DNA of 64,000 nt from Candidatus Gastranaerophilales bacterium (GTDB lineage Bacteria > Cyanobacteriota > Vampirovibrionia > Gastranaerophilales > Gastranaerophilaceae): positions 1 to 64,000 of the forward strand of contig CALUPU010000002.1 in the NCBI GenBank assembly GCA_944322725.1. The letters run 5' to 3'. The notes beneath the pieces were generated by a model. That model searched no databases. It had not been told where the DNA came from and was given only the letters and a program-made list of their open reading frames with translations. This document shows, in pieces, positions 48,402 to 59,003 of this stretch. The translations under genes were made by a program, and so were the position numbers. Position 1 is the stretch's first letter; every line of letters starts with the position of its first letter.

Positions 48402-48430
48402 ATAATCTGATAACTAAATACTTTTAAAAT

Positions 48431-48502
48431 GGGTGAGTGGCGCAGTGGTAGCGCAGTTGACTCTTAATCAATTGGTCGTGGGTTCGAATCCCACCTCACC
48501 CA
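48431..48502 (+). tRNA. tRNA-Lys (anticodon CTT)
   Basis: The cloverleaf is complete: acceptor GGGTGAG/CTCACCC, D-arm GCGC/GCGC, anticodon stem GTTGA/TCAAT with loop CTCTTAA (anticodon CTT), and T-arm GTGGG-TTCGAAT-CCCAC. The discriminator is A and CCA is not encoded. It reads AAG. Its 3' end is repeated 106 bp downstream. Confidence 0.96.
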
Positions 48503-48512
48503 TAAATTTTTT

Positions 48513-48538
48513 AAAAGAGGACATACGTCCTCTTTTTT
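48513..48538 (+). terminator. tRNA-Lys terminator
   Basis: AAAAGAGGAC-atac-GTCCTCTTTT with a trailing T-run lies 10 bases after the tRNA. Confidence 0.92.
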
Positions 48539-48541
48539 GTT

Positions 48542-48609
48542 TATTCGAACCCACAGGTGGGATAATCTGAAATCGCAAGCTGGCGCTCGCTCAGTCCCAC
48601 CTCACCCAT
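48542..48609. repeat. tRNA-Lys-derived 3'-end repeat in a hairpin
   Basis: TCCCACCTCACCCAT at 48595-48609 exactly repeats the tRNA-Lys 3' end (48489-48503). Just before it, TTCGAACCCAC at 48544-48554 resembles an inverted copy of the T-arm. AGGTGGGA-taat-CTGA (48556-48571) pairs with TCAG-TCCCACCT, giving a 12-bp hairpin with one bulge. This looks like an attachment-site scar or a tRNA-derived repeat at the edge of the accessory region. Confidence 0.6.
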
Positions 48610-48656
48610 TTTTTATGCTTGCTGTATTTTTAAGTCTGTTTTGCTCGGAAGTAAAA

Positions 48657-48689
48657 TGACAAACTGTCATGCTGAATTTATTTCAGCAT
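48657..48689. repeat. REP-like short palindrome
   Basis: TGACA-aac-TGTCA is followed at once by ATGCTGAA-N5-TTCAGCAT. Stretches of the form TGTCATGCTGAA...TTCAGCATCT are widely scattered intergenic repeats in bacteria. The rest of the gap to 48756 shows no gene. Confidence 0.55.
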
Positions 48690-48756
48690 CTATTTTATTA
48701 AGACTAAAAAGTTATTAGAATTCTTTCTAAATCTTTAACCCAAATTGCAACATGTT

Positions 48757-49530
48757 CTATTCGCATATTTCCCTCAAAGCGTTTAACATATTATTTAAAA
48801 TTACAAGTATTTCATCATTCGGCCGGATTAACAATTTACTGACGTTTTCTTCAAAGTCTTTAGGTAATATTTTACAGTTACCTTCTGCGTATTGAATAAG
48901 TCGTTTTTCACCAGGGTGTAAAAGTTCGTTTATCGCAAAAATTACATCAAAATAACTTGCCAGAAAAGCTGATATTCTATGGTTAATTGATACAATATCA
49001 TATCGCTTTATTGCTTTTTCTATCTGCTCATAATACGAAGCAAAGGGTTTATCCTTCATTAACATTATATTTCGTTTGATTATATTTTGTTTTAGTTCTT
49101 TCGGGTATTGCGTTTTTATTGCATTTTGTAGATTTAAAAGCCAATTATCTTTGTCAAATATTATTTCAAAATTTTTTAATGTAAACAGAAATGCAGTGGT
49201 GTAACCGTTTGAGGGATAGTGTTTAAACCAAACATTATCTACAATATTTTCAAACCAATTTGTATTCCAATACATAACATCCAGTTGTTGATTTAATTTA
49301 TCAACAAAAAATTCATCTCCTGAGCCAAAATACTCACCGCCAACTTCATATTTAGATGAATATTTCTTGATAATATTTTCTCTGTTAATAATAGGAATCT
49401 CTTTTTCAACAAAGACATAAACATCAATATCAGAAAGAATATCTGATGTTTTATTTGCTCCAGAGCCGCCTATTGCAGCAGCTTTAACGTGTGGAAGATT
49501 TTTGAATTCTTGTAATACTTCATTAAACAT
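48757..49530 (-). CDS. nucleotidyltransferase-fold protein
   Basis: The 257-aa protein has the Pol-beta-type nucleotidyltransferase motif AAIGGSGANKTSDILSDIDVYVF (residues 18-40, GS and DxD metal ligands) and a helical C-terminal half like DUF4037 or aminoglycoside adenylyltransferases. The substrate cannot be told. It is the last gene of the ATP-grasp operon, 4 bp after the aminotransferase gene, so it may adenylylate or otherwise modify the product of that pathway, or give resistance to it. Confidence 0.72.
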   Translation of the reverse strand: MFNEVLQEFKNLPHVKAAAIGGSGANKTSDILSDIDVYVFVEKEIPIINRENIIKKYSSKYEVGGEYFGSGDEFFVDKLNQQLDVMYWNTNWFENIVDNVWFKHYPSNGYTTAFLFTLKNFEIIFDKDNWLLNLQNAIKTQYPKELKQNIIKRNIMLMKDKPFASYYEQIEKAIKRYDIVSINHRISAFLASYFDVIFAINELLHPGEKRLIQYAEGNCKILPKDFEENVSKLLIRPNDEILVILNNMLNALREICE

Positions 49531-49533
49531 TAT

Positions 49534-50760
49534 TTAAGCAATCTCTGATGATACAAGTTCAAGCTTATTAATTAGAAAATCGATTTCTTCTTTTGTAATT
49601 AAATAACCGGGTAACAATCTGTAGGTTTGCCCTCTTCTTACTGCCTGCAAAAGTACGCCTTCTTCAAGCATTCTTGCCTGAAATTTTTTATAAATATCAG
49701 GATATTTTTTGAAAATATCATCATCTAAATCAAAACCGAGCATAAGCCCGTTGCCTCTCGGATTGCTAATCAACCTGCATTTGCGTGCAAGTTCATTGAG
49801 CCTGTCAAGAAGGTATCTGCCGTTAGTTTTATTTCTCTCTAACAGATTTTTTTCTTTAACGGTTTTTATTACATAAGAAACAATGGAACAAGCTAAAGGA
49901 TCATTTTGATGCGAGGAAAAATGAATAATTTTTCCTTCGATTTTTTCAGCCAATTCTTTGCTAAACGTAACGGAAGAAACAGCAAAACCCAGCCCCATTG
50001 CTTTTGCGCACACAAGAATATCCGGTTCCACGCCGATTTTTTGATAAGCAAACCATTCACCCGTACGCCCGAATCCTGTCTGACATTCATCAAAAATCAA
50101 TATTATATTGTTTTCATTGCATACTTTTCTCAATTCAACGAAAAACTCATTATCGGGAACAACAATACCGCCTACACCGAGTACAGGCTCTACAATAACT
50201 GCAGCTACATCATTTTCGTGTTCGCGCAGAATTTCCTGCATTTGACTGCGCACATCTTTCGGCTCATAACTTTCAATAAAAGCCTCTTTTTCATTATTCA
50301 TCAGTCTTGCCCAGATGCCGGACATTGTCAGACGCTGTGACCCGAGAGTTAAACCATGATATCCGTTTTTTAATGCAATTATCGTATTTTTTCCTGTAAG
50401 AAAACGTGAATATCTAAAAGCACACTCATTGGCTTCTGAACCTGTTGAAAGAAACATTGTTTTAGTCAAAGAACCGCCAGTAATATCAGCCATATCTTTA
50501 CAAGCCTTAAATACTTCCGGTGTAAGGGTAGAAGTGTTTGTATGATAAATTTTCTTTAGTTGATTCAAGACTACTTCCTGAAGCCCTTTGTCATTGTGAC
50601 CAAAGCTGAGACAAAACTGTCCTGAATTTAAATCAAGATATTTTTTGTTATCAACATCATAAACCCAGTTGCCATCGCCGTGATCAAGAATGACAGGATT
50701 GTACGGTGCTACTTCAAACAAATATGTATTGTCTATTTTATTTTCAACTGTACTATTCAT
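49534..50760 (-). CDS. class III aminotransferase
   Basis: The 408-aa PLP enzyme has FLSTGSEANECAFRYSR, NGYHGLTLGSQ, the cofactor Asp in LIFDECQTGFGRTG and the Schiff-base lysine in VCAKAMGLGF. It is related to acetylornithine, 4-aminobutyrate and 2,2-dialkylglycine aminotransferases. It differs from the aminotransferase at 15028-16425 in lacking the cysteine insertion. ATG 50760 follows GAGAAG and overlaps the end of the upstream epimerase gene by 8 bp; coupling is likely. Confidence 0.85.
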   Translation of the reverse strand: MNSTVENKIDNTYLFEVAPYNPVILDHGDGNWVYDVDNKKYLDLNSGQFCLSFGHNDKGLQEVVLNQLKKIYHTNTSTLTPEVFKACKDMADITGGSLTKTMFLSTGSEANECAFRYSRFLTGKNTIIALKNGYHGLTLGSQRLTMSGIWARLMNNEKEAFIESYEPKDVRSQMQEILREHENDVAAVIVEPVLGVGGIVVPDNEFFVELRKVCNENNIILIFDECQTGFGRTGEWFAYQKIGVEPDILVCAKAMGLGFAVSSVTFSKELAEKIEGKIIHFSSHQNDPLACSIVSYVIKTVKEKNLLERNKTNGRYLLDRLNELARKCRLISNPRGNGLMLGFDLDDDIFKKYPDIYKKFQARMLEEGVLLQAVRRGQTYRLLPGYLITKEEIDFLINKLELVSSEIA

Positions 50761-51667
50761 GGTATATCTTCTCAATGCCTTTCTCTAAAGTAAATTCAGG
50801 AACAAAACCAAGCAATTTTTCAGCTTTTGTAATATCAGGAATATTGTCAAATGTCTTGCACTCAACATTTATCTTCTCAATATTCAATTTTTTATTATAA
50901 ACTTTTTGTGAGATATTTATCAAGTCTAATATGCTGTCATTGCTTGCACCTGCAATATTAAACACATCAGACTCAGGGTATTCAACAGCTTTTACTATTG
51001 CCTGTACAGCATCATCAACATATAAAAATCTTCTTTTTTCATTTCCGGTACCGTAGAGTTTAAAACACTTATCATTTTTAACAGCATCGAGAAGTATCGG
51101 AATAATTCTTACGATAGGCTCGTTCGGACCATAAACCTGAGAAAATCTTAACATTTTTAGTACCGTACCTGTTGCCGCTGCTATTCGCCTCATATAAAAT
51201 TCACCCGATAACTTGGCAAGACCGTACGGGGTGAAGGCATTTAGTTCACAATCTTCTGTATAATTTATTTTTTCAGGTACACCGACAATATCTATTGTAC
51301 TTGTGTACACAAAATTCTTTATCCTGCCGCAAACATTCTGTGCAAACTGTACAAGCGGAATTAAAGTAGAACTGACCGCTTCTGCATAAGTTTCCTTCTT
51401 TTGTCCTATTACGGGAATATTTGCCGCCATGTAAATTGCTGCATCAAATTCACCGTATTTGTTAAATAAATCTTCGTATTGAACTGTATCAGAAGATGAC
51501 AAATCCATTTTTATATAATGAATATTATCAGTATCAGGGATATCTCTCCTTGTTATAACATAACACACGGCTCCGAACTGTGATAATATATTTACGGCCC
51601 TTTTCCCGATAAATCCTGTACCGCCCGTAATCAGTATTTTTTTGTTTTTCAAATTATCTAAGTTCAT
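50753..51667 (-). CDS. NAD-dependent epimerase/dehydratase (extended SDR)
   Basis: The 304-aa protein has the Rossmann motif ILITGGTGFIGKRAV, the catalytic YxxxK as YGLAK, and YGPNEP and FLYVDDAVQAI as in nucleotide-sugar epimerases. It begins within the last codons of the ATP-grasp gene. ATG 51667 has GGAG eleven bases upstream; ATG codons at 51676 and 51700 are possible alternatives. It probably acts on a nucleotide sugar or a similar polyol intermediate. Confidence 0.85.
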   Translation of the reverse strand: MNLDNLKNKKILITGGTGFIGKRAVNILSQFGAVCYVITRRDIPDTDNIHYIKMDLSSSDTVQYEDLFNKYGEFDAAIYMAANIPVIGQKKETYAEAVSSTLIPLVQFAQNVCGRIKNFVYTSTIDIVGVPEKINYTEDCELNAFTPYGLAKLSGEFYMRRIAAATGTVLKMLRFSQVYGPNEPIVRIIPILLDAVKNDKCFKLYGTGNEKRRFLYVDDAVQAIVKAVEYPESDVFNIAGASNDSILDLINISQKVYNKKLNIEKINVECKTFDNIPDITKAEKLLGFVPEFTLEKGIEKIYHE

Positions 51668-52613
51668 AAGTCTCATATCTCCTGGCATATATTTTGTCAT
51701 ATTTTAGATTTTTATCAATATCTATTTCCTGTCCGCTGAATATTTTTATCTGGTTTTCAATTATATCCAAGCCTGAACGCATACTATAATCAGTACCAGC
51801 TGACATTCTGGGGTTGATCTCTATCAAATAATATTTTCCTTTATCAAAAATATACTCACAATTACCTGCACCGTAAAAGCCTATAAGATTTATCAGCCTG
51901 TTTGTTACATCTTCAAGATATTCATTTTTAACGGTTTTTACAACTACACCGCACCCGTTTTTATTTCTGACTAGTTCCTGTCTTACAAGCGATACAAATT
52001 TGTTATGTTTTATATCATTTACAAATTCTACGGTAAAAAATTCACCTTCAACATATTCCTGAACAATATATTCACTTGCATCAATATCCGTCATATACAA
52101 ATCAAGTTCTGCTTTGTTGTTAATTTTCTTACAGCCGTTGCTCGCCCGCCCGCTTGAAGGTTTTACAAAAACAGGAAAGCTAAGCTTCGTTGCATCAACA
52201 TCCGCAAGACAAGAAGTTTTTGTGTATATTTCAGGAAGATTCTCTTTAACTGTTTCAAATGTTTTAAACTTATTTCTGCATATACCTACAGATTCTGCAG
52301 AAGAACAGCATACAGTAGTACCGGCTGCTTCAAACAAATGTTTGTTCTGAGCGAGAAAATAAACTTCTTCATCAATTACGGGAAATAAAAAATCAATTCT
52401 CTCTTTTTTACATATATTTAATAAGGATTGCTTATAATCTTCCATTTCATAGATGCTCGGAACTCTGTAAAATTTATCAATCTCAAAAGAAGCCGGGATA
52501 TATTCAGCAGGATAAATATCTGTACCCACAACATAATTATCAGGCGTTTCTTTTAGATACTTGGCAACAGTTGAATTATTATTAGTACCTACTGCTGTTA
52601 AAAGAAACCTCAT
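51654..52613 (-). CDS. ATP-grasp ligase (carbamoyl-phosphate-synthase-like)
   Basis: The 319-aa protein has an N-terminal Rossmann-like domain (RFLLTAVGTNNNSTVAKYL) followed by an ATP-grasp domain with FVKPSSGRASNGCKKI, YIVQEYVEGEFFTVEF and the metal site YLIEINPRMSAGTD. Such enzymes join a carboxylate to an amine using ATP. It is the first gene of a four-gene operon; a TATAAT on the - strand at about 52690-52695 may be its -10. The product is not predictable from sequence. Confidence 0.82.
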   Translation of the reverse strand: MRFLLTAVGTNNNSTVAKYLKETPDNYVVGTDIYPAEYIPASFEIDKFYRVPSIYEMEDYKQSLLNICKKERIDFLFPVIDEEVYFLAQNKHLFEAAGTTVCCSSAESVGICRNKFKTFETVKENLPEIYTKTSCLADVDATKLSFPVFVKPSSGRASNGCKKINNKAELDLYMTDIDASEYIVQEYVEGEFFTVEFVNDIKHNKFVSLVRQELVRNKNGCGVVVKTVKNEYLEDVTNRLINLIGFYGAGNCEYIFDKGKYYLIEINPRMSAGTDYSMRSGLDIIENQIKIFSGQEIDIDKNLKYDKIYARRYETYELR

Positions 52614-52721
52614 TAAATAACCTCTTTCATCCCGTGAACATCAAATTAACATTATTATTTTACAGCAAAAAAATAAAAAAAGCCCGCTATTATACATTGT
52701 TTGATTGTATTAAAATGAAAA

Positions 52722-53615
52722 TTAATCACCCAATTTTTTATGCAGCTTTTCTAAAAAAAGCTTTGCAGCAGGAGAGAAAACCTGATATTTTTTCCATACA
52801 ATATCCAATCCCGATTCCAGCTTAGGGTAAAGCGGTCTGAAACACAAATCACTTTCTTTTGATGTATCAGCAAGTTTGTCGAGCGTAATTGCATACCCTA
52901 CTCCTGCTTTAACCATTATTGCTGCATTGTATACAAGATTATATGTTGCAGCTATATATAAATCTTCATACTTATCGCCAAACCAATTCAAAAATCCACT
53001 GTCTTTTGCATATTTGGGAGACATCTGCCGGGACGCCAGCAATGGAATATTAATCAAATCCTCAAGTACTATATCTTTTTTTCCGGACAATGGACTGTCT
53101 TTTCGCATGATGACACCCCATACATCCTTTTGAGGAAGGGAAAGACTGTCATATTTTGATACATCCACAGGCTGAATCAAAATGCCAAAATCAAGCAATC
53201 CTCTATCAAGTTTTTCAGTAACATCTTCCGCATTTCCGGAATAAATATGAAATTTGACAGCAGGAAATTCAGATTGTATTTCCTTTATAATTTCAGCAAT
53301 GTACTTCATACAATCAGATTCACCACCGCCAATATAAATATCACCGCTCAATGTTTCATTTATAGATTGAAATTCCGAACGCGTCTTTTCAACAAGTTCA
53401 ACAATTTCTTCAGCTCTTTTTTGCAGAATCATCCCCTCGGGAGTAAGTGTGACTCTATATTTTCCGCGAATCAAAAGTTTTTGTTTTAATTCTTTCTCCA
53501 AATCTTGCAGCTGCCTGCTCAAAGTTGGCTGCGTCAGATGCAAAGAATTTGCAGCCCCCGTTATACTGCCTTCTCTCGCCACTGCAAGAAAATATTTGAG
53601 TACTCGTATTTCCAT
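52722..53615 (-). CDS. LysR-family transcriptional regulator
   Basis: The 297-aa protein has the LysR winged helix (1-60, VLKYFLAVAREGSITGAANSLHLTQPTLS split as VLKYFLAVAREGSITGAA and LHLTQPTLSRQL) and a periplasmic-binding-protein-like effector domain. It lies back to back with two alpha/beta hydrolase genes, the usual arrangement for a regulator and its target, and 108 bp upstream of the ATP-grasp operon on the same strand. The inducer is unknown. Confidence 0.93.
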   Translation of the reverse strand: MEIRVLKYFLAVAREGSITGAANSLHLTQPTLSRQLQDLEKELKQKLLIRGKYRVTLTPEGMILQKRAEEIVELVEKTRSEFQSINETLSGDIYIGGGESDCMKYIAEIIKEIQSEFPAVKFHIYSGNAEDVTEKLDRGLLDFGILIQPVDVSKYDSLSLPQKDVWGVIMRKDSPLSGKKDIVLEDLINIPLLASRQMSPKYAKDSGFLNWFGDKYEDLYIAATYNLVYNAAIMVKAGVGYAITLDKLADTSKESDLCFRPLYPKLESGLDIVWKKYQVFSPAAKLFLEKLHKKLGD

Positions 53616-53658
53616 AATTTAACAATACAAAACTAAATTATACCCGTCAAGCATTTTT

Positions 53659-53679
53659 AAATATTGAATATAAGTATTT
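53659..53679. promoter_or_regulatory. candidate LysR-type operator
   Basis: AAATA-N11-TATTT is a dyad with the 11-base spacing typical of LysR boxes, centred in the 110-bp gap between the regulator and the divergent hydrolase operon. The gap is AT-rich, so chance is possible. Confidence 0.4.
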
Positions 53680-53725
53680 GCTATTTTTAAAAAATCATAA
53701 ATAATAAAAAAAGGGATTATAACTT

Positions 53726-54616
53726 ATGGATATTATAAAAGTCAACACAAAAAGAGGTCTTGAACTAAAAGGCGCAATATTTGCCCCCTCGCAGACAGAT
53801 ACAGTGCTCGTTATGCTTACAGGAATCTGTTCAAATATTTTTCAAAATGAACTTTTGTATTCAACAGGAAAGCTTCTTGAAGAAAATGGCATAGCAACAA
53901 TCATCGCACATGCACATGATTCTTTCTCATGCTTTGCGTATTCTGATTTATCAACAGGCAAACAAAAGCACACTGGTGTGTTCAATGATGATTTTAATAT
54001 GGTTTACGAAGATGTTGATAGCTATGTTAAATATGCAAAAGAACTCGGGTTCAAAAATATAATCCTTGCCGGACACTCTCTTGGTTCAAACAAAATTATT
54101 CATTATCTTGGAAACACGAATAATAATTTTGTGGATTATTTTATAGTATCTTCTCCGATTGATATTATGCACTGGTGGAGTGTTATGCCAAATATAGATA
54201 AATGCTTTGCAATGGCTAAAGATTGGGTAGACAAAGGTCATGGCGATGATATACTCCCGTTTTTGTTCGGAGGCTTTTCTCCTATGACAGCAAACACCGT
54301 ACTGGGATTTTACAATGCGGATAATCTGAAAAACTGTCCTGTTTTAAGTAAAAAAGGCGAAACAGATTCATTGTATAATATCAAACCAAACGGTTCCTTT
54401 ATAATAGGTTCCAAAGATTCCGTAGTCGGTGAAAGCCCAAAAAGATTTATGGAAACTCTAAATTCCCTGACAAAATATCCTCAAAAAAATCAAGTAATCG
54501 AAGTTATTGGAGCCAGTCATATATTTTACGGAATGCACGATGTATATGCTAGAACAATCGTAAACTGCATTCAAAATCATTTTTTGTCAAATAAAAAGGA
54601 GAACAGTAATGTTTAA
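53726..54616 (+). CDS. alpha/beta hydrolase
   Basis: The 296-aa protein has the Ser elbow LAGHSLGSNKI (S118), an early strand VLVMLTGICSN and a late histidine in IGASHIFYG. An acid is likely in GSKDSVV. No signal peptide is seen, so it acts in the cytoplasm. The next gene overlaps it by 8 bp. The substrate may be an ester or peptide-like compound sensed by the divergent LysR regulator. Confidence 0.82.
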   Translation: MDIIKVNTKRGLELKGAIFAPSQTDTVLVMLTGICSNIFQNELLYSTGKLLEENGIATIIAHAHDSFSCFAYSDLSTGKQKHTGVFNDDFNMVYEDVDSYVKYAKELGFKNIILAGHSLGSNKIIHYLGNTNNNFVDYFIVSSPIDIMHWWSVMPNIDKCFAMAKDWVDKGHGDDILPFLFGGFSPMTANTVLGFYNADNLKNCPVLSKKGETDSLYNIKPNGSFIIGSKDSVVGESPKRFMETLNSLTKYPQKNQVIEVIGASHIFYGMHDVYARTIVNCIQNHFLSNKKENSNV

Positions 54617-55637
54617 AAATATTCTGCTTTTCTGTTTTACTTTTATATTAATAATAGGAGGCAATCTTATGAGTAATGCAAAAGATAATGATTGGGACAA
54701 AACCTTTACAAAAAGCGATAAAGTTAATGTAGAAAAGGTTCATTTTAAAAACAGATACGGTATAGAACTGACAGGTGACTTATATATCCCTAAAAATTCG
54801 TCTGAAAAAAATTTACCGGCAATTGCCATAAGCGGTCCTTTCGGTGCAGTCAAAGAGCAAGCTTCAGGTCTGTATGCACAAACACTTGCACAACGAGGGT
54901 TTATCACACTTGCATTTGACCCGTCTTTCACAGGCGAGAGTTCCGGTGAGCCTAGAAATGTTGCATCCCCTGATATCAATACGGAAGATTTTTCAGCTGC
55001 AGTTGATTTTTTGTGTAATCAAAAAAATGTAGACCCTGATAAAATTGGTATTCTTGGTATTTGCGGCTTCGGCGGAATGGGACTGAATGCTGCGGCAATT
55101 GATACAAGAATAAAAGCAACCGTAACCTCTACAATGTATGATATGTCAAGGGTTAACGCCAAAGGATATTTTGATTCATTGGATAAAAAATCAAGATACG
55201 AATTAAAACAAACTCTAAACAGACAAAGAACAGAAGATTACAAAAACGGTACTTATGCAAAAGCTGCAGGATTACCCGGGAAGTTAATCGGTAAAGAGCC
55301 GCAGTTTGTACAGGATTATTACAGTTACTACAAAACACCGCGCGGTTTTCATAAACGTTCCATTAATTCAAATGGAAACTGGAATATGACATCTTCTCTG
55401 TCTTTTATTAATATGCCGATACTCATATACAGTGATGAAATTCAAAGTGCAATATTAATGTTACACGGAGAAAAAGCACACAGCAGATATTTTAGTGAAG
55501 ATGCTTTTAAAAAACTTAAAGGTGACAATAAGGAATTATTAATCATTAAAGGTGCAAACCATGTAGATCTATATGACAATCCGGAAAAAATACCTTTTGA
55601 TAAAATTGAAAATTTTTATAAAAAATATTTAAAATAG
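54609..55637 (+). CDS. exported or membrane-anchored alpha/beta hydrolase, DLH/YcjY-like
   Basis: The 342-aa protein starts with a hydrophobic segment (5-20) that may be a signal peptide or anchor. It has the elbow GILGICGFGGMG with Cys152 as the probable nucleophile, as in YcjY and dienelactone hydrolase relatives; the acidic residue is in the region after 265 and the histidine in KGANHVDLYD. An internal ATG at 54669 with GGAGG upstream could give a cytosolic form beginning SNAKDND. It is cotranscribed with the preceding hydrolase. Confidence 0.8.
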   Translation: MFKNILLFCFTFILIIGGNLMSNAKDNDWDKTFTKSDKVNVEKVHFKNRYGIELTGDLYIPKNSSEKNLPAIAISGPFGAVKEQASGLYAQTLAQRGFITLAFDPSFTGESSGEPRNVASPDINTEDFSAAVDFLCNQKNVDPDKIGILGICGFGGMGLNAAAIDTRIKATVTSTMYDMSRVNAKGYFDSLDKKSRYELKQTLNRQRTEDYKNGTYAKAAGLPGKLIGKEPQFVQDYYSYYKTPRGFHKRSINSNGNWNMTSSLSFINMPILIYSDEIQSAILMLHGEKAHSRYFSEDAFKKLKGDNKELLIIKGANHVDLYDNPEKIPFDKIENFYKKYLK

Positions 55638-55729
55638 TTTTTACAAAGCTTAATATTTTAATTCTTGAACAGCAAAATTTCTGTTTTTTGAACTTATATA
55701 AATAAGGTCACAATCCGGAGGTTCGCAAT

Positions 55730-56932
55730 ATGCTTATCCTGAACAACTCTTACTCAAATATTTATGCCGGTAAAACAAAAAACAGAAATTTTTACAACGC
55801 AACGCTGACAAATAATACTTCGAATACCGCTGACAATTACACTCTTTCTTTTTATAACTCAAGCAGAAACTCTGTACCCGTTGATTTTAAATACAATACG
55901 AAAATATCTTTCGGTGAATTTTTCGACCCTAACAGAACAATTCCTCATATTGACTATGAAGAATATAAAGCAATGACCGAAAGTACCAAAAAGAGGTTCA
56001 GGAAAAAATATAATGAATTTATGAAAGCCGTAGACGAAGAAGAACTGGTTGACCTGAAATATAAATACATGCCTCTCAAAGAAAACAGAGATATGGAAAA
56101 TTTTATAAAAATCTCCAAAATTTATACAAAATATAAAGACAATCCGATTATATGCCTTGGCCGCAGCCCAAAATGGTTTTTAAATACCGCATTATGGATG
56201 AAAGACGGTATAAATGATTACAAATTTGTTGCGTTTTCTAAATTCTGGTACAGACCTGACAGCCATGGTTATAAAAGAATGGATAGTATGGCACCAACGC
56301 CAAAAGAAGAAACAGCTTACAGAAACTACCTCAAAAGAATAAAAGCAGATCCTAAAACAATTGTTGATAACATGGAAAAAACAGGTAAAAAAACAATAAT
56401 CACTGACTATATCTGTTCAGGTAAGGGAGCATGTTCATTTCTGGATGTATTGTCACGATATGCAGACGATTTAGGGATATTGGAAAAATTTGCAAAATCG
56501 ATTCAAATTGTCGGTATCGGCTCAATGGATTACATGGAAGAGTTAAACCCCTTTGCTGAATATATATCAATCCCGAGAGTACCAATGCCTGACAAACTCA
56601 GACCTTATAAAAATGAAATAAAACAAGAATATTATGATATTGATTACAGGGTTTTTGAAGAAATGCTTCTGAACCAGAATACTAATGAATGCCGCTCTAC
56701 ATATTACCCGCATGAAACCTGGACAATATACAGACCTGACCAGTTCAAAACAGGTTTAATTAAAGATTTGAAAAAGGTAAAAGAAATGGCAAAAAAATTA
56801 AAAACAAAAAAAGATTCCATGTCATCATTTACGCCTGCAATGTACGATTTCAGAAACCTGTTAAACTTCCATATTCTTGATGAACTGGATAAAAGAGACC
56901 TGCTGAAAGAGACTCATCGCTCTAAAATGTAA
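55730..56932 (+). CDS. phosphoribosyltransferase-like orphan with N-terminal SFG motif
   Basis: The 400-aa protein starts with a 55-residue Asn/Ser/Thr-rich disordered leader that ends in TKISFGEFF (57-65). The middle region recalls type I phosphoribosyltransferases: IICLGRSPKWFLNTAL (140-155) as the first loop and TIITDYICSGKGACSFLDVL (222-241) in place of the PRPP-binding DD-x2-x-SGxT loop. Only one acidic residue (D226) precedes the loop, so catalysis is uncertain. No membrane helix is seen. A strong CGGAGG site precedes the ATG. Confidence 0.65.
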   Translation: MLILNNSYSNIYAGKTKNRNFYNATLTNNTSNTADNYTLSFYNSSRNSVPVDFKYNTKISFGEFFDPNRTIPHIDYEEYKAMTESTKKRFRKKYNEFMKAVDEEELVDLKYKYMPLKENRDMENFIKISKIYTKYKDNPIICLGRSPKWFLNTALWMKDGINDYKFVAFSKFWYRPDSHGYKRMDSMAPTPKEETAYRNYLKRIKADPKTIVDNMEKTGKKTIITDYICSGKGACSFLDVLSRYADDLGILEKFAKSIQIVGIGSMDYMEELNPFAEYISIPRVPMPDKLRPYKNEIKQEYYDIDYRVFEEMLLNQNTNECRSTYYPHETWTIYRPDQFKTGLIKDLKKVKEMAKKLKTKKDSMSSFTPAMYDFRNLLNFHILDELDKRDLLKETHRSKM

Positions 56933-56937
56933 AAAAC

Positions 56938-56963
56938 AGGCTTCGGATTTTTGCGAAGCTTTT
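56938..56963 (+). terminator. weak terminator after the PRT-like gene
   Basis: GCTTCG-N8-CGAAGC followed by TTTTGC lies just after the stop codon. The T-run is short. Confidence 0.55.
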
Positions 56964-57059
56964 GCAGGTTAAATTCTAAGCGGTACATATTTTTTCTGTC
57001 AATTTTTTTTCGTTTTTATGTTTTATACTAACTAAAAATATTTAACAGCTTACAAACTT

Positions 57060-58934
57060 ATGCAAATTAACCAGATACCTTCTTTTAAAGCAATACAATT
57101 AAATAATACAGAAAAAGAAAAAGCCAAACTTGTCTTTGACGCTTTTAAATCTGATTCAACAGAAAGACAGGAGCAAACACTCAAAAATGATTTATTGCAA
57201 ATATTTGATAAACACTTGCAACAAGAAGCATTAAAAAAAAGTTATTTGTGTCAGGATAAAGAAAATTATTTACAAAATCTGTATCTGCACTTCTTTGAAA
57301 CTATAGAACATATAAAATCAAAAGCAAACCCGCTGGATTTACTGATTGAATCCATTGATAAACACAAAGTACAGGAAGATGATGCTAAAACAAAATACAA
57401 GCGTATAAAAATTTATTCCATTGATGACTTAACGCCTTACAGTACCACATCCTATGAAAAAACATATGTGAATCTCAAAACGGCTGACGATCTGCCCGTT
57501 TATACCAGTGCACCATCACTTGAAGAACGCAGGGAATCAAAATCAAAGTTTAAAAAACTTATCTCTTCCACAAACCTTACAAAATCACAAAGCCAAGCGC
57601 TTACTCTGCGTTCTTCCGGCAAAACATATAAGCAAATATCAGAAAAATTACATACATCAAAAACTAACACCATATACAAGGTAAGCACTGCAATTGCAAA
57701 AATTCAAAATGAAAATAATATTCTTAGTATAAAAATTAAAAATCAGGCAGAAGCTTTTAAAACCAACTTCAAGACGAACAAAACATTAAAAGAAATAGAA
57801 CAGCTTCTAATAAAAAACCCTTACTTAATAAGTTATGACATAGAAAAAATGGCAGACAATGTAGAAAAGACAGCAAAAAATCTTGGTCTTTCAACAAAAG
57901 ATTATTTTAACTGTGTACTTAGTGTTCCGGGACTTTTTGCACAAAAACCCGAAACTATAACAAACAATGTAAAATTGGCAGCAAAAAAACTCAATCTGCC
58001 TGTAAATACATACTTAAATGCCTGTTTAAAAATTTGCACTCTTTTTTGTCTAAAGCCTGAAACTATTGAAACAAATGTAAATTCAATGGTCGGTTATTTT
58101 AATTTTGACAGAGATAAATATATTAAATCTGCACTAAGACAACCCCAACTGTTTTACCAAAAACCCTCAACTTTAATTGAAAATATTGAACAAGTATCAG
58201 AAATGATTCATGTTGACCCTATTCAATATGGCTCAGCGTGCCTCAAACAACCATCTTTGTTTGTTATTAAAAGTAGAACAATTTTGTCTAATATCGAACA
58301 AAGTTCTAATTGTTTAGATATCTCCAAAGCGGACTTTATCAAAATTGGACTTATTCAACCGCAATTATTTTTGCAAAAGCCACAAACTATACTAAACAAT
58401 GTAACAGAATACTGTAAATTATTAAATATGTCGAAAAAAGAATTTATGAAAATAGCATTAAAATACCCTGCATTGTTAAACCAAAGAGCTGATACCAATA
58501 TGGAACATATAAAAGAATCAGCTAAATTGTTAGAAGTTTCTGAAAAAGAACTTTTGGAACAAGCTGCAATCTCACCATTTTTATTTGGGTACAATCCAGA
58601 GAAAATTAAACACAAAGCCGACATCGCTTTATTATACAAACAAATAAAAGGAAAGCAGAATGAAAATATCATAAAAGCAATCCGTACGATAACAGACGAA
58701 ACACATTTTGATATAATTTTAAAATATATTCTCCAAAAACAACTGGGGATATCACTCAAAAACAAAAATTTACACCAAAATATTCAAAATTTTATAACAA
58801 TCAATGAAAATAAAAAAATAAAAGTACAGCTGCCGCAAAATCCTGTAACCAAAGAATTTATTGACTATGTGAATAATCTGTCACTAACATCTGCGGGGAA
58901 ACATATCTTTGATTTTAAAATAAAAAATGTCTAG
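57060..58934 (+). CDS. helix-turn-helix protein with eight 36-residue mTERF-like repeats
   Basis: The 624-aa protein has no close match I can name. It begins MQINQIPSFKAI, like other SFG/SFK-tagged orphans here. A LuxR/sigma-region-4-type helix-turn-helix lies at about 172-215 (LTKSQSQALTLRSSGKTYKQ). Residues 254-530 are eight repeats with exact 36-residue spacing: the proline (Cys in repeat 3) falls at 254, 290, 326, 362, 398, 434, 470 and 506. The consensus is PxLFxxKPxTIxxNVx6Lx7Yx4L. This resembles mTERF helical repeats, which bind nucleic acid in mitochondria and plastids. No ribosome-binding site is evident. Confidence 0.75.
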   Translation: MQINQIPSFKAIQLNNTEKEKAKLVFDAFKSDSTERQEQTLKNDLLQIFDKHLQQEALKKSYLCQDKENYLQNLYLHFFETIEHIKSKANPLDLLIESIDKHKVQEDDAKTKYKRIKIYSIDDLTPYSTTSYEKTYVNLKTADDLPVYTSAPSLEERRESKSKFKKLISSTNLTKSQSQALTLRSSGKTYKQISEKLHTSKTNTIYKVSTAIAKIQNENNILSIKIKNQAEAFKTNFKTNKTLKEIEQLLIKNPYLISYDIEKMADNVEKTAKNLGLSTKDYFNCVLSVPGLFAQKPETITNNVKLAAKKLNLPVNTYLNACLKICTLFCLKPETIETNVNSMVGYFNFDRDKYIKSALRQPQLFYQKPSTLIENIEQVSEMIHVDPIQYGSACLKQPSLFVIKSRTILSNIEQSSNCLDISKADFIKIGLIQPQLFLQKPQTILNNVTEYCKLLNMSKKEFMKIALKYPALLNQRADTNMEHIKESAKLLEVSEKELLEQAAISPFLFGYNPEKIKHKADIALLYKQIKGKQNENIIKAIRTITDETHFDIILKYILQKQLGISLKNKNLHQNIQNFITINENKKIKVQLPQNPVTKEFIDYVNNLSLTSAGKHIFDFKIKNV

Positions 58935-58946
58935 TACAACAGGTAT

Positions 58947-58981
58947 AAAAAACAGACTCCGGAAACTTCCGGAGCCTGTTT
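58947..58981 (-). terminator. fusA terminator
   Basis: AACAGACTCCGGAA and TTCCGGAGCCTGTT form a 14-bp stem with one mismatch and a 2-base loop. On the - strand a T-run follows, making it the end of fusA; it may also stop the convergent repeat-protein gene. Confidence 0.88.
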
Positions 58982-59003
58982 AATTTTATCAATCTTAGAA
59001 AAA

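What the first reader, a model, noticed from the sequence alone, without database searches (positions are those of the whole stretch)
57060..58934. Eight exactly 36-residue mTERF-like repeats behind a helix-turn-helix in a bacterium
The repeat proline or its equivalent falls at residues 254, 290, 326, 362, 398, 434, 470 and 506, a perfect 36-residue period. The consensus is PxLFxxKPxTIxxNV...L...Y...L. Such regularity suggests a superhelix with one unit per recognition step, as in TALE, PPR or mTERF proteins. mTERF proteins are known mainly from mitochondria and plastids. Positions just after PxLF vary between repeats (SYD, AQK, CLK, YQK, VIK, LQK, NQR, GYN), which could be specificity residues. 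A helix-turn-helix in the same chain supports nucleic-acid binding. Family assignment and function are inferences.
Basis: partly seen in the sequence, partly recalled or inferred. Interest (0 to 1): 0.78.

Follow-up and report, generated by a model that had tools for sequence, protein, structure and literature searches.

The report
Sigma-factor-like protein fused to mTERF repeats
A gut bacterium related to cyanobacteria carries a gene whose product joins an RNA-polymerase sigma-factor-like front half to a regular DNA-reading repeat array of the kind known from mitochondria, which suggests a transcription factor whose target is set by a row of interchangeable repeat units.

Summary
ORF 57060-58934 (624 aa) has eight units of exactly 36 residues, and they are genuine mTERF repeats: Pfam E=8.5e-14, predicted structure matching human MTERF1 at Z 17.5 over 310 residues. 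The 'HTH' is region 4 of a degenerate sigma-70-family module (region 2, a region-3.2-like linker, region 4), supported by profile searches, profile-profile alignment and structure search. So this is a sigma-like/mTERF-array fusion. The family is patchy in one family of Gastranaerophilales, is absent from 22 same-genus genomes, and combines its modules freely (sigma alone, array alone, fusion, three tandem fusions). Across arrays the two most variable positions are Pro+1 and Pro+4. Two direct-readout arginines of MTERF1 (R202, R350) and F243 align to Pro+1, and F322 aligns to Pro+4, so the specificity-residue idea gains real support. Most likely it is a regulator that docks on RNA polymerase through the sigma part and is aimed by the array; recruitment versus roadblock is untested. 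DNA-binding prokaryotic mTERF-like repeat proteins (pTERF) were published in 2024, so the kind is known; I found no report of the sigma fusion or of the position-resolved hypervariability.

The parts
57060..58934 (+). CDS of the 624-aa sigma-like/mTERF-array protein (P0001)
   Evidence: Pfam mTERF 51.6 bits against a cut-off of 23.1
57060..57104 (+). short N-terminal tail (aa 1-15) with the S-F-K-A-I motif also seen in the homologues
   Evidence: alignment; low pLDDT
57105..57362 (+). sigma region 2-like helical domain (aa 16-101); core-binding D..Q motif at aa 69-72 (N..Q here); region 2.3-2.4 short and without Trp
57414..57500 (+). sigma region 3.2-like linker (aa 119-147, SIDD...ADDLPV)
   Evidence: hhalign and HMM alignment to SigA/RpoD
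57519..57722 (+). sigma region 4-like helix-turn-helix (aa 154-221)
57786..57893 (+). mTERF unit 1 (aa 243-278; NPYLISYD)
57894..58001 (+). mTERF unit 2 (aa 279-314; VPGLFAQK)
58002..58109 (+). mTERF unit 3 (aa 315-350; ICTLFCLK)
58110..58217 (+). mTERF unit 4 (aa 351-386; QPQLFYQK)
58218..58325 (+). mTERF unit 5 (aa 387-422; QPSLFVIK)
58326..58433 (+). mTERF unit 6 (aa 423-458; QPQLFLQK)
58434..58541 (+). mTERF unit 7 (aa 459-494; YPALLNQR)
58542..58649 (+). mTERF unit 8, diverged cap (aa 495-530; SPFLFGYN)
58695..58925 (+). conserved C-terminal alpha/beta domain (aa 546-622, ends in ..GKxIFxFxI), shared by sigma and non-sigma members
   Evidence: alignment; model
58957..58974 (+). terminator-like hairpin after the gene
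   Evidence: 3 such sites found, 1.0 expected in shuffles

Best explanation
The gene encodes a chimeric transcription regulator. Its N-terminal 221 residues are a degenerate sigma-70-family module (core-binding region 2, region-3.2-like linker, region 4). Residues ~243-530 are eight in-phase mTERF repeats that form a superhelix along duplex DNA. A small conserved alpha/beta domain closes the protein. Shown here: fold and family of both parts, and that the positions most variable between units are positions where human MTERF1 touches bases. Inferred: the array recognises a specific duplex sequence, and the sigma module docks on RNA polymerase core so that polymerase is brought to, or held at, the site chosen by the array. 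Because the region 2.3-2.4 equivalent is short and lacks Trp (aromatic residues there serve in promoter melting in ordinary sigmas), it probably does not open promoters as an ordinary sigma would. I favour array-directed recruitment or positioning of polymerase, with roadblock or termination second.
For: mTERF: Pfam E 8.5e-14; family profile finds MTERF3 (2.6e-10) and MTERF1 (best 7.7e-8) among solved structures; model residues 231-557 match MTERF1 at Z 17.5, 310 aligned. Sigma: hhalign of the N-terminal family to the genome's own sigmas, probability 97.5, E 5e-12, spanning regions 2 and 4; HMM finds SigA/RpoD at 7.6e-7; TIGR02937 matches 13 of 17 N-termini, best 5.6e-10; in the 288-genome scan the weaker matches (E 1e-11 to 1e-9) cover regions 3.2-4 in frames of mostly ~330-360 aa, and the one in the window's own genome lies in its RpoD-like sigma; Foldseek and VIA lists for the N-terminal model are almost entirely sigma factors. 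Region 2.2 D in 15 of 17 and Q in 13 of 17. Specificity: Pro+4 and Pro+1 are the most variable positions averaged over 10 arrays (0.65, 0.60; permutation p<=5e-5; same order without the largest array) and hold the top two ranks in 30 arrays; pN/pS 0.97 there, 0.09 at scaffold positions, 0.41 elsewhere; MTERF1 R202, F243, R350 align to Pro+1, F322 to Pro+4, R162 to Pro-2, with R162/R202/R251/R350 direct-readout residues (PMC4705650). Prokaryotic mTERF-like repeat proteins bind DNA specifically (pTERF1 Kd 1.87 nM; PMC11417379).
Against: No binding, polymerase or expression data for this protein. In P0001 itself sigma and HTH matches are below family cut-offs, and the region 2.2 Asp is Asn. Foldseek E-values for the sigma part are weak (best 3e-3) and long alignments have high rmsd, probably because domain orientation differs. 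Pro+1/Pro+4 are rarely charged (mostly Q, S, T, P / Y, C, S, T), unlike the reading arginines of MTERF1. Some mTERF proteins bind RNA or work in ribosome assembly (MTERF4 and Tetrahymena mS93 appear among the matches).
Confidence: 0.55

Rival explanations
1. The array binds a specific DNA site and acts as repressor, roadblock or terminator, as MTERF1 does; the sigma-like part has lost core binding and only adds a second DNA contact through its region-4 HTH.
For: Region 2.3-2.4 reduced, no Trp in 17 of 17; array-only and simple-HTH-plus-array relatives exist (L009, L016, L031), so polymerase contact is not needed by the whole family; MTERF1 unwinding supports a roadblock mechanism.
Against: The region 2.2 core-binding motif and the region 3.2-like linker are largely kept across 17 diverged N-termini, which a mere DNA-contact domain would not need.
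Confidence: 0.25
2. It is an RNA-binding protein (rRNA or mRNA), as plant mTERFs in splicing or MTERF4 in ribosome assembly.
For: mTERF folds are found in ribosome assembly intermediates and mitoribosomes.
Against: A sigma-like module points to transcription; best structural matches are the DNA-binding MTERF1; the characterised prokaryotic mTERF-like proteins bind DNA.
Confidence: 0.1
3. The array is a protein-binding scaffold or is exported to act on a eukaryotic host, like other helical-repeat proteins of host-associated bacteria.
For: Array-only relatives occur in host-associated lineages, including a Prochloron (ascidian symbiont) assembly and a Rickettsiales assembly.
Against: Fusion to a bacterial sigma module makes an intracellular bacterial role much more likely; the Pro-2 to Pro+7 stretch is basic and nearly acid-free. 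No secretion signal was tested.
Confidence: 0.07

Closest known systems
pTERF1/pTERF2, prokaryotic mTERF-like DNA-binding tandem repeat proteins (Hu et al. 2024, PMC11417379)
   Same: Prokaryotic, gut-metagenome origin, tandem mTERF-like three-helix units (3-11), nanomolar sequence-specific DNA binding, different repeats giving different motifs.
   Different: Reported mostly from Bacillota MAGs; the paper says the mTERF Pro and Leu signature is not seen in pTERF1, whereas it is clear here; the passages read mention no sigma module.
Human MTERF1 (and MTERF3)
   Same: Same fold and motif; base-contact positions coincide with the variable positions here.
   Different: Eukaryotic organelle protein with irregular units and no sigma module.
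Sigma-70 family factors (SigA/RpoD, SigB, sigmaE)
   Same: Region 2, region-3.2-like linker and region 4 in order.
   Different: Region 2.3-2.4 short and without Trp; no region 3.0-3.1 seen; fused to an array.
TALE and TALE-like proteins
   Same: Works like one on paper: near-identical units with a few hypervariable positions.
   Different: Matches the mTERF fold family instead; 36/39-residue mTERF motif; no code known.
RNA-guided transcription complex with a sigma factor (PDB 9n9q)
   Same: A guide module aims a sigma factor; its sigma-like chain is among the fold matches.
   Different: Guide is RNA there, a protein repeat array here; the comparison is conceptual and rests on the entry title and own knowledge only.

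Membership tests
mTERF (PF02536) | profile match above the curated cut-off | tested here: met
   51.6 bits against 23.1, E 8.5e-14
mTERF (PF02536) | repeated three-helix unit with conserved Pro and hydrophobic positions | tested here: met
   Pro in 210 of 227 family units
mTERF (PF02536) | superhelical fold like MTERF1 | tested here: met
   Z 17.5, 310 aligned residues, rmsd 7.0; handedness itself was not measured
mTERF (PF02536) | binds nucleic acid | not testable with these tools
   inference from position mapping only
pTERF (Hu et al. 2024) | sequence relationship to pTERF1/pTERF2 | not tested
pTERF (Hu et al. 2024) | tandem mTERF-like units in a prokaryote | tested here: met
sigma-70 family factor | region 4 helix-turn-helix | tested here: met
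   in the homologue L030 Sigma70_r4 scores 30.3 against a cut-off of 24.1; P0001 itself is below cut-off
sigma-70 family factor | region 2 with core-binding region 2.2 | tested here: met
   hhalign, fold, D 15/17 and Q 13/17; weaker than for region 4
sigma-70 family factor | full region 2.3-2.4 for -10 recognition and melting | tested here: not met
   helix of 10-11 residues, no Trp in 17 of 17
sigma-70 family factor | binds RNA polymerase core and initiates transcription | not testable with these tools
   -
TALE | TALE fold and repeat sequence | tested here: inconclusive
   no TALE chain among the listed Foldseek matches; absence from the list does not exclude it
PPR | 35-residue two-helix PPR motif | tested here: not met
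   three helices per 36-residue unit; no PPR family among Pfam matches

The most novel reading that the evidence does not exclude
A repeat-guided sigma factor: RNA polymerase is aimed at promoters by a modular mTERF array whose Pro+1/Pro+4 residues follow a simple readable code, so that changing units rewires the regulon.
Probability: 0.22. Interest if true: 0.88.

Novelty: new variant of a known kind. Interest (0 to 1): 0.68.

Why it matters
How mTERF repeats choose their sites has been hard to study because eukaryotic units are irregular. Here regular, near-identical units differ mainly at two positions that coincide with base-contact positions of MTERF1, which makes a recognition code directly testable in E. 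coli-type assays. The fusion to a sigma-like module would, if it works as proposed, be a natural protein-guided counterpart to RNA-guided transcription, and the bacterial members bear on the origin of organellar mTERFs.

Tried and rejected
Phage and plasmid collections: no match; two viral-contig scans: no relative. So no sign of a phage or plasmid origin in what was searched. Two alignments (A2, A3) were too diverged for the genome scan; A4 worked. Searching for an operon partner failed: the closest homologue (L004) lies in a different setting, beside a ruvC-like gene, and the upstream 400-aa gene has no above-threshold family and is in only 3 of 23 genomes of the genus. Matches of the HTH to archaeal Tfx/PRK03975 regulators were set aside because they cover only the HTH and a little after it, while sigma matches cover 16-221. 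Weak matches in G021 and G016 are a response regulator and an unrelated protein. Scattered odd Pfam hits in repetitive homologues were treated as composition artefacts. No TALE chain appeared among the listed fold matches. Literature searches found no report of a sigma-mTERF fusion, but only open-licence papers are held.

Full report
What is there. Window 57060-58934 (+) is one intact ORF of 624 codons, followed by a terminator-like hairpin. AlphaFold2 (16-sequence alignment, mean pLDDT 85.7) gives eight three-helix units with breaks at the Pro.

Family of the array. Pfam mTERF matches at E 8.5e-14, twice its cut-off in bits. A profile of the family finds human MTERF3 at 2.6e-10, Tetrahymena mS93 at 4.2e-10 and MTERF1 at 8e-8 to 1e-6. 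Foldseek's best hits are MTERF1 and MTERF3, and VIA gives Z 17.5 over 310 residues (rmsd 7.0) for MTERF1. This is well above the sigma rows in the same list and above what unrelated helical models usually reach.

The front half. Homologues with a clearer version (L030, L025) pass the Pfam Sigma70_r4 cut-off, and TIGR02937 (sigma70-ECF) matches 13 of 17 N-termini, best 5.6e-10. hhalign of the N-terminal alignment against the eight sigma factors of the same genome gives probability 97.5 and E 5e-12, from region 2 through the SLD...D.I.D linker to region 4. An HMM of the N-termini finds SigA/RpoD structures at 7.6e-7, over regions 3.2-4. When that profile is run over 288 genomes, strong hits are family members, and the weaker hits at 1e-11 to 1e-9 cover regions 3.2-4 in frames of mostly 330-360 aa; in the window's own genome that protein is its RpoD-like sigma L040. 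The N-terminal model alone matches almost only sigma factors; Z values of 8-9.5 are moderate, but the agreement of rows and the two-domain coverage argue against a chance helical match. The region 2.2 Asp and Gln are kept in 15 and 13 of 17 sequences (P0001 has Asn and Gln); the region 2.3-2.4 equivalent is short and has no Trp in any of 17. I therefore call it sigma-like: by homology it belongs to the family, but one functional element was tested and not met.

Distribution and architecture. PF02536 matches occur in 48 of 383 genomes of the order, all in the window's family, and 0 of 14 control genomes; a phylum-wide sample gives the same picture. The window's genome has one copy, and none of 22 same-genus genomes has a true relative. 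Members come as sigma+array, array with a simple HTH, array alone, and sigma-like alone (L113, 218 aa). G343 carries three sigma+array genes in tandem, overlapping by about 20 nt (L091 10514-16527). Nearly all members in this family of bacteria end in a similar C-terminal domain. Outside the order, arrays were found in records labelled Prochloron, Planctomycetes, Alphaproteobacteria, Rickettsiales, Patescibacteria and an archaeon; MAG labels can be wrong.

Variable positions. Among near-identical unit pairs within an array, Pro+4 and Pro+1 differ most often (0.67 and 0.62), while the L-F between them at +2 and +3 never differs. Averaged over 10 arrays they rank first and second (0.65, 0.60; null best pair at most 0.567 in 20,000 permutations, p<=5e-5), also without the largest array, and they hold the top two ranks in 30 arrays of all kinds; they are not the top positions in every single array. 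pN/pS is 0.97 at these two positions, 0.41 elsewhere and 0.09 at scaffold positions; gene conversion and saturation limit how far that can be pushed. In the profile alignment to MTERF1, R202, F243 and R350 fall at Pro+1, F322 at Pro+4, R162 at Pro-2, R251 and Y288 at Pro+9; for R202, F243, R350 and F322 the unit's own Pro fixes the register. R162, R202, R251 and R350 are direct-readout residues of MTERF1 (PMC4705650); F243, Y288 and F322 are seen here only as the subjects of MTERF1-DNA mutant structures, and I recall them as residues that stack on the flipped bases. In 227 units K/R occupies Pro-2 in 75% and Pro+6 in 43%, and acidic residues are nearly absent from Pro-5 to Pro+7.

Turnover. 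Between two related assemblies (L049, L052/L057) the sigma part is 251 of 262 identical while the array differs in units and in variable residues, as expected if specificity changes faster than the polymerase-facing part. L057 may be the other end of the L052 gene (same assembly, split contigs).

Setting. The gene sits between tRNA-Lys (48430) and fusA (59004), an interval that is 10.5 kb here and about 1.3 kb in G005, with other genes in another species of the genus. It is a variable zone, which fits a gene that comes and goes.

Mechanism and how sure. Shown: two homologous modules, and hypervariability at positions that contact bases in MTERF1. From published work: prokaryotic mTERF-like arrays bind DNA specifically. 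Inferred: DNA binding by this protein, polymerase docking, and the direction of the effect. I put 0.55 on a DNA-aimed, polymerase-docking regulator, with roadblock/repressor without docking next.

Novelty. The existence of mTERF-like DNA-binding repeat proteins in bacteria is known since 2024. The canonical Pro-containing motif in Gastranaerophilales, the sigma fusion and the match between hypervariable and base-contact positions were not found in the literature searched. New variant of a known kind.

Noticed in passing
L058:5908-8292 and L058:8542-10458: In a contig labelled Prochloron didemni, two adjacent array-only genes share an N-terminus; the first has 16 units of exactly 39 residues. 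Neighbouring ORFs look like a protochlorophyllide reductase and DNA polymerase III alpha (by eye), which fits a cyanobacterial contig.
   Followed up: partly
L091:10514-16527 (-): Three sigma+mTERF genes in tandem, overlapping by about 20 nt, in one genome of the family.
   Followed up: partly
L113:1501-2157: A stand-alone 218-aa sigma-like protein of the same N-terminal family without any repeat array.
   Followed up: partly
window 48430-59003: The tRNA-Lys to fusA interval differs in length and gene content between species of the genus, like an insertion hot spot.
   Followed up: partly
window 55730-56932: 400-aa protein of unknown family just upstream, present in only 3 of 23 genomes of the genus.
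   Followed up: partly
N-termini of many members, e.g. window 57081-57107: A short S/T-F-K/G-A/S motif within the first ~20-60 residues recurs in array members with and without the sigma part and also in the unrelated upstream gene; meaning unknown.
   Followed up: no
L068, L069, L062, L058: Array proteins from Alphaproteobacteria, Planctomycetes and Prochloron records seem to share a different C-terminal segment (around TGK/TGQ) from the Gastranaerophilales C-terminal domain.
   Followed up: no
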